A stretch of DNA of 44,789 nt from the NCBI GenBank assembly GCA_026989215.1, contig JALSJV010000298.1:1-44789 (forward strand), given 5' to 3'. Positions within the stretch are counted from its first letter, which is position 1. Each line of letters begins with the position of its first letter. The notes below the pieces were generated by a model. That model did not search any database and was not told the origin of the DNA. It saw only the letters and a list, made by a program, of their open reading frames with translations. Origin of the DNA: Acidimicrobiia bacterium (GTDB lineage Bacteria > Actinomycetota > Acidimicrobiia > Spongiisociales > ZC4RG35). The position numbers and the translations under genes were made by a program. Below, in pieces: positions 37,416-39,272 of the stretch.

Positions 37416-38182
37416 AGCCGGGTCCTGGTTCGACGTGTTCGAGCGAGGAACCGCCGTCGATGCAGCGCCACGTAGACCATCCCGGCGAGGAACCCCGCCA
37501 CATGGGCCTCCCAGGCGATGTTCGTCTCCGCTCCGGCGAGGAGGAACTGCCCGACCAGCCAGAAGATCAGGAAGGTGGCCGCGGGGAGCACGAAGGGGAG
37601 GAAGAAGAAAGGCGGGACGATCGTCACCACCTCGGCGGTCGGATAGAGGATCAGGTAGGCCCCCATCACCCCGGCGATCGCTCCCGAAGCCCCGACGACG
37701 GGGATCGTCGATCCGGGGTTGAGGAGGATGTGGCCGAAGGCGGCGACGATTCCGGTCCCCAGGTAGAAGAGGAGGTACCGGACGTGCCCGAGGGCGTCCT
37801 CCACGTTGTTGCCGAAGATCGCCAGCACCCACAGGTTCCCGAAGAGGTGGGCGAGGCCTCCGTGGAAGAAGATCGACGCCACCACCGCCCAGAACACGTT
37901 CTTGTCGGGGAAGACGGGGGTCCCGGCCTCGGCCGAGCAACGCCCGGTGCGGATCTCGTCGATGCTGAGGGGCTCCCCGGTCAGGACCTCACAGGGGATG
38001 GCGGCCTCGGCGTACAGGAATCGTTCTCCGGCGTCGGGTGCGGAGGGCTGGACGAAGAAGAAGACGTAGACGGCCGCGGCGATGATGAGATAGGTCACCA
38101 CCGGGGTACGCACCGACGGGTTGACATCGCGGATCGGGAGCACGACGCGCTCGCAGGGTTCGGGGAGCGATAATGGCGGCAT
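37403..38182 (-). CDS. Rhomboid family intramembrane serine protease
   Basis: GGLAHLFGNLWVLAIFGNNVED, GASGAIAGVMGAYLI (GxSG), AHVAGFLAG; start at MPPLSLPEP inferred. Confidence 0.92.
   Translation of the reverse strand: MPPLSLPEPCERVVLPIRDVNPSVRTPVVTYLIIAAAVYVFFFVQPSAPDAGERFLYAEAAIPCEVLTGEPLSIDEIRTGRCSAEAGTPVFPDKNVFWAVVASIFFHGGLAHLFGNLWVLAIFGNNVEDALGHVRYLLFYLGTGIVAAFGHILLNPGSTIPVVGASGAIAGVMGAYLILYPTAEVVTIVPPFFFLPFVLPAATFLIFWLVGQFLLAGAETNIAWEAHVAGFLAGMVYVALHRRRFLARTRRTRTRLYPM
38169..38174 (+). promoter_or_regulatory. Putative -10 GATAAT of leaderless 60-aa gene
   Basis: 6 nt to ATG 38181. Confidence 0.5.
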
Positions 38183-38363
38183 GGATACTACGCAGCGAGA
38201 AGACGCCGTGGAACGGCGACCCGTCGACGAGGGATCCGACGAGGGTCCCGCGCTGGAGGCCGAGATCGACGCCATCGCCGACCTCGATCCCGTCGAGGCG
38301 GAGGAGCGGGTCACCCTCCTGACGTCCCGGCTCGCCGACCTCCTCGACGGAGGCGACGGCTGA
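38181..38363 (+). CDS. Small acidic protein of unknown function (60 aa)
   Basis: MDTTQREDAVERRPVDEGSDEGPALEAEIDAIADLDPVEAEERVTLLTSRLADLLDGGDG*; GATAAT 6 nt upstream of ATG. Confidence 0.65.
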   Translation: MDTTQREDAVERRPVDEGSDEGPALEAEIDAIADLDPVEAEERVTLLTSRLADLLDGGDG

Positions 38364-38437
38364 AGTCGTCACCGACGTCGGGTACGGTGGGATCGCCCGA
38401 GCCGCGAGGGGCTCGCCTCGTCTCTGCCATGGAGCGA

Positions 38438-38471
38438 CCATGAAACTGGGTGTCCCATGAAACTGGGTGTC
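38438..38471 (+). repeat. Perfect 17-bp tandem duplication spanning the nadK start codon
   Basis: CCATGAAACTGGGTGTC at 38438-38454 and 38455-38471. Confidence 0.97.
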
Positions 38472-39272
38472 ATCGTCAACGAGGAGCGGCCGGCGGCGCT
38501 CGCCTTCGCCGATCGGCTCCTCACCGCCGCCGGTCGACGTGGGCTGGCCGTCGTCACCGAGGGGGAAGCGGTGCCCGGTGACGACTGGCGCGGGGAGCAG
38601 GTCGACGTGGTGATCGCCGTCGGCGGGGACGGGACGGTCCTCCGTGCCACCCAACGGGCTCTCGAACTCGACGTGCCGGTCCTGGGGTTCAACCTCGGCA
38701 CGGTCGGGTTCCTCGCCGAGGCCGAACCGGAGGATCTCGAATCGGTGCTCGATCGTCTCGCCGAGGGTGCGATCCGGGTGATCCCCCGGATGACCCTGGA
38801 GGCGACCACGTCGGAGGGAGTCGTCGGGTACGGGGTGAACGACGTGGTGATCGAGAAGATCGAGAGCCAGCGCCTGGTGGCCCTCGACGTGACGATCGAC
38901 GGGAGCGAGTTCCTCACCTACCGGGCGGACGGGGTCGTCATCGCCACCCCCACGGGGTCGACGGCCTACTCGTTCTCGGCAGGCGGGCCCCTCATCGACC
39001 CCGAGATCGAGGCGATCAGCGTCACCGCCGTCGCCCCCCACGCGCTCTTCGATCGCACGATCGTCCTGGCACCGTCGGCGCGTCTCCGCTGCAGGGTCGT
39101 CGCCGACCGTCCGGTGCAGGTCAGCGTCGACGGACGGGCATTGGGCCATCTCGGCGCCGACGGATGGGTCGATGTCCGGCGGGCGTCACGGGCCGTCGGG
39201 TTCGTCACCTTCGACCACGAGACGTTCCCTCGACGGGTGCGCGACCGTCTGGGGCTGGGCAATGCTGGATGA
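38457..39272 (+). CDS. nadK: NAD kinase
   Basis: VIAVGGDGTVLRA, GFNLGTVGFLAE, GVVIATPTGSTAYSFSAGGPLIDPE. Confidence 0.97.
   Translation: MKLGVIVNEERPAALAFADRLLTAAGRRGLAVVTEGEAVPGDDWRGEQVDVVIAVGGDGTVLRATQRALELDVPVLGFNLGTVGFLAEAEPEDLESVLDRLAEGAIRVIPRMTLEATTSEGVVGYGVNDVVIEKIESQRLVALDVTIDGSEFLTYRADGVVIATPTGSTAYSFSAGGPLIDPEIEAISVTAVAPHALFDRTIVLAPSARLRCRVVADRPVQVSVDGRALGHLGADGWVDVRRASRAVGFVTFDHETFPRRVRDRLGLGNAG

What the first reader, a model, noticed from the sequence alone, without database searches (positions are those of the whole stretch)
38429..38471. Chain of two mini-uORFs (MERP*, MKLGVP*) coupled by ATGA overlaps into nadK, created in part by a 17-bp tandem duplication of the start site
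ATG GAG CGA CCA TGA (38429-38443) ends on ATG 38440; ATG AAA CTG GGT GTC CCA TGA (38440-38460) ends on the nadK ATG 38457. The three frames are all different. CCATGAAACTGGGTGTC is perfectly duplicated (38438-38454, 38455-38471), so nadK's native N-terminus MKLGV is copied out-of-frame in front of itself. GGAG (38431-38434) is correctly spaced for the uORF ATG but 22 nt from the nadK ATG, so NAD kinase may be translated by termination-reinitiation, a possible attenuation/tuning device or recent slippage event.
Basis: seen in the sequence. Interest (0 to 1): 0.66.

Follow-up and report, generated by a model that had tools for sequence, protein, structure and literature searches.

The report
Duplicated start site before NAD kinase
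In one uncultured actinobacterium a small recent copying slip doubled 17 bases over the start of the single-copy gene nadK, leaving a six-codon decoy reading frame that ends on the real start codon; it is a real but mostly ordinary mutation that can be read as a known kind of translational coupling.

Summary
The sequence claim is correct to the base: CCATGAAACTGGGTGTC is duplicated head to tail (38438-38454, 38455-38471) over the start of nadK in a draft genome of an Acidimicrobiia-like bacterium. It occurs nowhere else in the genome. The one congener held has a single copy, with its Shine-Dalgarno (SD) site 6 nt before ATG, so the duplication is derived and recent. In 1.04 Mb of the same genome only two other exact tandem duplications (unit at least 10 bp) have a length not divisible by 3.

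The ATGA coupling follows from geometry: nadK starts ATG-A and the unit is 17 bp (2 mod 3), so each extra copy makes one MKLGVP* frame ending on the next ATG. Only MKLGVP* is credible as a translated uORF, because it inherits the ancestral nadK SD. MERP* predates the duplication, lacks an SD and is absent from the congener.

Most likely this is a tolerated micro-duplication, with nadK translated by a mix of ATGA reinitiation and direct initiation. Coupled uORFs of this kind are known. Nothing supports a regulatory or phase-variable device. Interest is low to moderate.

The parts
38438..38454 (+). Copy 1 of the 17-bp tandem duplication; its ATG (38440) is the position homologous to the nadK start of the congener
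38455..38471 (+). Copy 2 of the 17-bp tandem duplication; carries the start codon now in frame with nadK
38440..38460 (+). Mini-ORF MKLGVP*, overlapping the nadK start by ATGA (-4 spacing)
38429..38443 (+). Mini-ORF MERP*, overlapping ATG 38440 by ATGA; no SD, not in the congener, probably chance
38431..38434 (+). GGAG, ancestral nadK SD (about -5.6 kcal/mol with an assumed 16S tail), now serving ATG 38440
38448..38452 (+). GGGTG inside the mini-ORF, SD-like site (about -6.3 kcal/mol with an assumed 16S tail) 4 nt before the nadK ATG
38457..39272 (+). nadK, NAD kinase, 271 aa, single copy in the genome
38383..38388 (+). TACGGT inside a stretch CGTCGGGTACGGTG identical in the congener; possible -10-like promoter element (inference; consensus scan found none)

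Best explanation
A recent replication-slippage event duplicated 17 bp across the nadK start site. Shown: the first copy keeps the old SD and start codon but now reads only MKLGVP and stops on TGA, which overlaps the start codon of the second copy (ATGA), where the intact nadK frame begins. Inferred: ribosomes bound at GGAG translate the six-codon frame, terminate with the nadK ATG next to the P site and partly reinitiate there, and some 30S subunits initiate directly at the nadK ATG through the SD-like GGGTG inside the mini-ORF. The duplication is tolerated because the gene start (ATG-A) and the unit length (2 mod 3) make every extra copy a self-closing, coupled mini-ORF. No regulatory role need be assumed.
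For: Exact geometry. Single copy and a well-placed SD at the homologous start in the congener, 86% identical in protein. nadK intact with its NAD-kinase domains and the only copy in the genome, with dN 0.09 against dS 0.73 to the congener, so it is very likely expressed. NTGA coupling is the usual start configuration of nadK in this family: in about 18 of 27 relatives the nadK start overlaps the stop of the upstream gene (tlyA or a small coiled-coil gene) by NTGA. SD energies -5.6 for ATG 38440 and -6.3 for ATG 38457. Published precedent that -4 spacing couples efficiently (PMC12548453, PMC6728339), and an AUGA uORF required for ppe2 translation in M. tuberculosis (PMC11260477).
Against: No expression data. 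The SD energies are weak: about 15-20% of random 11-nt stretches of this genome are as strong. The 16S gene is missing from the assembly, so the anti-SD tail is assumed. The mini-ORF ends Pro-TGA, a context reported to slow termination in some bacteria (PMC7246954), which could lower reinitiation.
Confidence: 0.6

Rival explanations
1. Direct initiation only: the duplication copied start codon and downstream sequence, and GGGTG in copy 1 (codons LGV of the native gene) acts as a new SD for the nadK ATG. MKLGVP* is a competing decoy that lowers nadK output but does not deliver ribosomes to it.
For: GGGTG, 4 nt before the ATG, pairs with the assumed 16S tail at least as well as GGAG does for ATG 38440. 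Coupling and direct initiation are not exclusive in E. coli, and one of five tested pairs (bioBF) was not coupled (PMC6728339).
Against: GGGTG is a chance by-product of coding sequence. -4 spacing is among the most efficient for coupling (PMC12548453).
Confidence: 0.25
2. Assembly or strain-mixing artefact: the draft genome carries a false or minority duplication.
For: The genome is a 340-contig draft. No second genome of the species and no reads are available. The 34-mer has no match in viral contigs.
Against: The site is 6 kb from the contig end. Of about 25 exact tandem duplications (unit at least 10 bp) in 1.04 Mb of this assembly, only three have a length that is not a multiple of 3, so the assembly is not scattering frame-breaking duplications. 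De Bruijn assemblers tend to collapse short tandem repeats rather than create them (general knowledge). nadK stays intact when read from the second copy.
Confidence: 0.1
3. Selected device: the duplicated start is an attenuator or slippage-driven tuning switch for NAD kinase, where copy number n gives n-1 coupled mini-ORFs.
For: Perfect tandem repeats can change copy number, and by geometry each copy adds a coupled MKLGVP* without breaking nadK.
Against: Absent from the congener and all other family members read. No structure better than shuffles. No RNA family. Only two copies. No sensing codons.
Confidence: 0.05

Closest known systems
AUGA-coupled uORF uPPE2 upstream of ppe2 in Mycobacterium tuberculosis (PMC11260477)
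   Same: Actinobacterial leader with an out-of-frame uORF that has the SD and shares AUGA with the start of the gene.
   Different: uPPE2 is longer, partly conserved, under a B12 riboswitch and shown by reporters to be needed. MKLGVP* is six codons, species-specific, without a riboswitch and untested; the nadK start also has an SD-like site of its own.
MIRU insertions at start codons in mycobacteria (as described in PMC12548453)
   Same: A sequence inserted at a start codon brings an ORF coupled to the gene with -4 spacing, so the insertion is tolerated.
   Different: MIRUs are dispersed repeats found in many places. Here a local 17-bp duplication, unique in the genome, does the same by geometry.
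Bicistronic-design leaders and short 'nonsense' upstream ORFs used in synthetic biology (PMC13255528; PMC10367133)
   Same: A short ORF with an internal RBS ends at or near the start of the target gene.
   Different: Engineered and optimised; here natural, with weak SD sites.
NTGA overlap between tlyA (or a small gene) and nadK in related genomes
   Same: Same four-base stop/start overlap at the same nadK start codon.
   Different: In relatives the upstream partner is a real gene; here it is a six-codon by-product of a duplication.

Membership tests
NUGA-coupled upstream ORF (termination-reinitiation) | uORF stop overlaps the downstream start as NUGA | tested here: met
   ATGA 38457-38460
NUGA-coupled upstream ORF (termination-reinitiation) | uORF has a usable start and SD | tested here: met
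   MKLGVP*: GGAG 5 nt before ATG 38440, -5.6 kcal/mol, the ancestral nadK SD. MERP* fails (-1.0 to -2.8).
NUGA-coupled upstream ORF (termination-reinitiation) | Downstream start is poorly initiated on its own | tested here: inconclusive
   An SD-like GGGTG lies 4 nt before the nadK ATG, -6.3 kcal/mol
NUGA-coupled upstream ORF (termination-reinitiation) | uORF is translated and the downstream gene depends on it | not testable with these tools
   Needs Ribo-seq or reporters
MIRU-like dispersed element | Repeat present at several places in the genome | tested here: not met
   The 17-mer with up to 2 mismatches occurs only at these two adjacent positions
Phase-variable simple sequence repeat | Multi-copy tandem array at the locus | tested here: not met
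   Two copies only
Phase-variable simple sequence repeat | Copy number varies between cells or strains | not testable with these tools
   No reads and no second genome of the species; the congener has one copy
NAD kinase | NAD_kinase N- and C-terminal domains | tested here: met
   PF01513 and PF20143 above their cut-offs; solved-structure hit 1u0r

The most novel reading that the evidence does not exclude
A slippage-tuned translational ladder on a single-copy metabolic gene: because the start is ATG-A and the unit is 2 mod 3, each gain or loss of a 17-bp copy adds or removes one coupled MKLGVP* mini-ORF without breaking nadK, so NAD kinase output could be adjusted reversibly by copy number.
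Probability: 0.06. Interest if true: 0.55.

Novelty: new member of a known kind. Interest (0 to 1): 0.25.

Why it matters
It is a clean natural example of how a micro-duplication over an ATG-A start creates a coupled uORF in one step and is therefore survivable even in a gene with no second copy. It suggests a simple rule: unit length 2 mod 3 over an NTG-A start gives self-closing -4 coupled mini-ORFs. That rule could be surveyed across genomes to ask how coupled uORFs arise. As a single, recent, unconserved case it does not itself show a regulatory mechanism.

Tried and rejected
Regulatory RNA in the leader: folds of the leader and start region are no better than shuffles (z 0.64 and -0.29), and there is no Rfam match (one sub-threshold snoRNA hit elsewhere).

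Conserved longer uORF: the frame ending at 38443 can be opened from GTG 38387 (18 codons), and the congener has a similar GTG frame ending 3 nt before nadK. By hand count on the alignment, substitutions fall about evenly on the three codon positions, so there is no sign of coding selection.

Leader hairpin CGAGCC/GGCTCG (38398-38415): a hairpin also lies at about the same place in the congener, but similar sequences elsewhere in the genome are near control level.

Alternative nadK start: no ATG/GTG/TTG in frame between the stop at 38361 and ATG 38457; only CTG 38424.

MIRU-like mobile repeat: rejected.

Exact 34-mer in viral contigs: none. The 16S 3' end could not be read because 16S is missing from the assembly.

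Crude survey of mini-ORFs coupled to other genes: 22 candidate starts among 547 long ORFs have an NTGA-overlapping mini-ORF, so such geometry alone is not rare. nadK itself was dropped by that survey's overlap rule, because a longer spurious frame lies on the other strand.

Full report
Observation. The sequence at 38429-38471 is as described. CCATGAAACTGGGTGTC occurs twice head to tail, identical in 17 of 17 positions, and nowhere else in the 2.98 Mb genome even with two mismatches. nadK (38457-39272, 271 aa) is an intact NAD kinase, the only copy in the genome.

Ancestral state. The only other genome of the genus (G001, also WFOA01000100.1, an Acidimicrobiia MAG) encodes a nadK 86% identical in protein. 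There the start region is GGGAGTGACCG-ATGAAGCTGGGTGTG: one copy, with the SD 6 nt before the ATG. The start homologous to the congener's is ATG 38440, and the duplication pushed the nadK frame 17 bp downstream. None of the other relatives whose starts were read shows a duplicated start. The copies are identical while dS to the congener is 0.73. With roughly 21 freely varying sites and no change, the duplication is likely younger than about 0.14 substitutions per site, well under half of the branch (rough inference).

Not noise in the assembly. In 1.04 Mb of this genome (about a third) there are some 25 exact tandem duplications with a unit of at least 10 bp. All but three have lengths divisible by 3: the 17-bp nadK case, a 19-bp one in an intergenic region and an 11-bp one whose context was not settled. 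Reads were not available, so an artefact or minority allele is unlikely but not excluded.

Geometry. Because nadK begins ATG-A and the unit is 17 (2 mod 3), a frame opened at any upstream copy reads ATG AAA CTG GGT GTC CCA TGA and closes on the next copy's ATGA. The coupling is therefore an automatic consequence of the duplication, not evidence of design. MERP* also ends in ATGA, but on copy 1, so it does not need the duplication. It lacks an SD (-1.0 to -2.8 kcal/mol) and has no counterpart in the congener.

Initiation. With the standard 16S 3' tail assumed (16S is absent from the assembly), GGAG before ATG 38440 scores -5.6 and GGGTG before the nadK ATG -6.3 kcal/mol. About 15-20% of random 11-nt stretches are as good, so both are modest. 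Termination-reinitiation and direct initiation are both possible, and they coexist in characterised E. coli pairs (PMC6728339). Coupling is most efficient at -4 to +3 nt spacing (PMC12548453). Both mini-ORFs end Pro-TGA, a context linked to slow termination in some bacteria (PMC7246954).

Family context. In about 18 of 27 relatives with a resolvable start, nadK overlaps the stop of its upstream gene (tlyA, or a small coiled-coil gene) by NTGA; the others follow the upstream gene by up to about 60 nt. The naming of tlyA rests on the C-terminal sequence and the usual actinobacterial gene order (own knowledge, not searched). The window's genus has a longer gap (80 nt in the congener, 76 nt to ATG 38440 in the window). 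The duplication thus recreates, with a six-codon by-product, the configuration usual for nadK in this family. This may help explain why it is tolerated (inference). recN overlaps the end of nadK (ATG 39262), so its translation may be coupled in turn.

Comparison. Coupled short uORFs are known in actinobacteria (ppe2, PMC11260477), MIRUs insert at start codons with the same -4 coupling (PMC12548453), and synthetic bicistronic leaders use the same logic (PMC13255528). The locus works like these in outline, but dependence of nadK on the uORF was not tested. No paper on uORF control of bacterial nadK was found.

Verdict. A real, recent, local micro-duplication that probably yields a coupled decoy ORF. 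It is a tidy example of a known kind, with no evidence for regulation or phase variation.

Noticed in passing
38181-38363 (+): Small gene (60 aa, weak match to coiled-coil DUF7310, below cut-off) between the divergent rhomboid gene and nadK. Similar small proteins (ELADLLxxILDxLE) precede nadK in several relatives, where they or tlyA overlap the nadK start by NTGA.
   Followed up: partly
38376-38389 (+): CGTCGGGTACGGTG is identical in the congener although the flanks have diverged; possibly the nadK promoter (-10-like TACGGT).
   Followed up: partly
39262-39272 (+): recN start (ATG 39262) overlaps the 3' end of nadK by 11 nt.
   Followed up: no
L110:3710-3747: Exact 19-bp tandem duplication (CTCGTCCAGGAATGGGGGA) in the intergenic region between a divergent amidohydrolase-like gene and a glucose-6-phosphate isomerase-like gene of the same genome.
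   Followed up: partly
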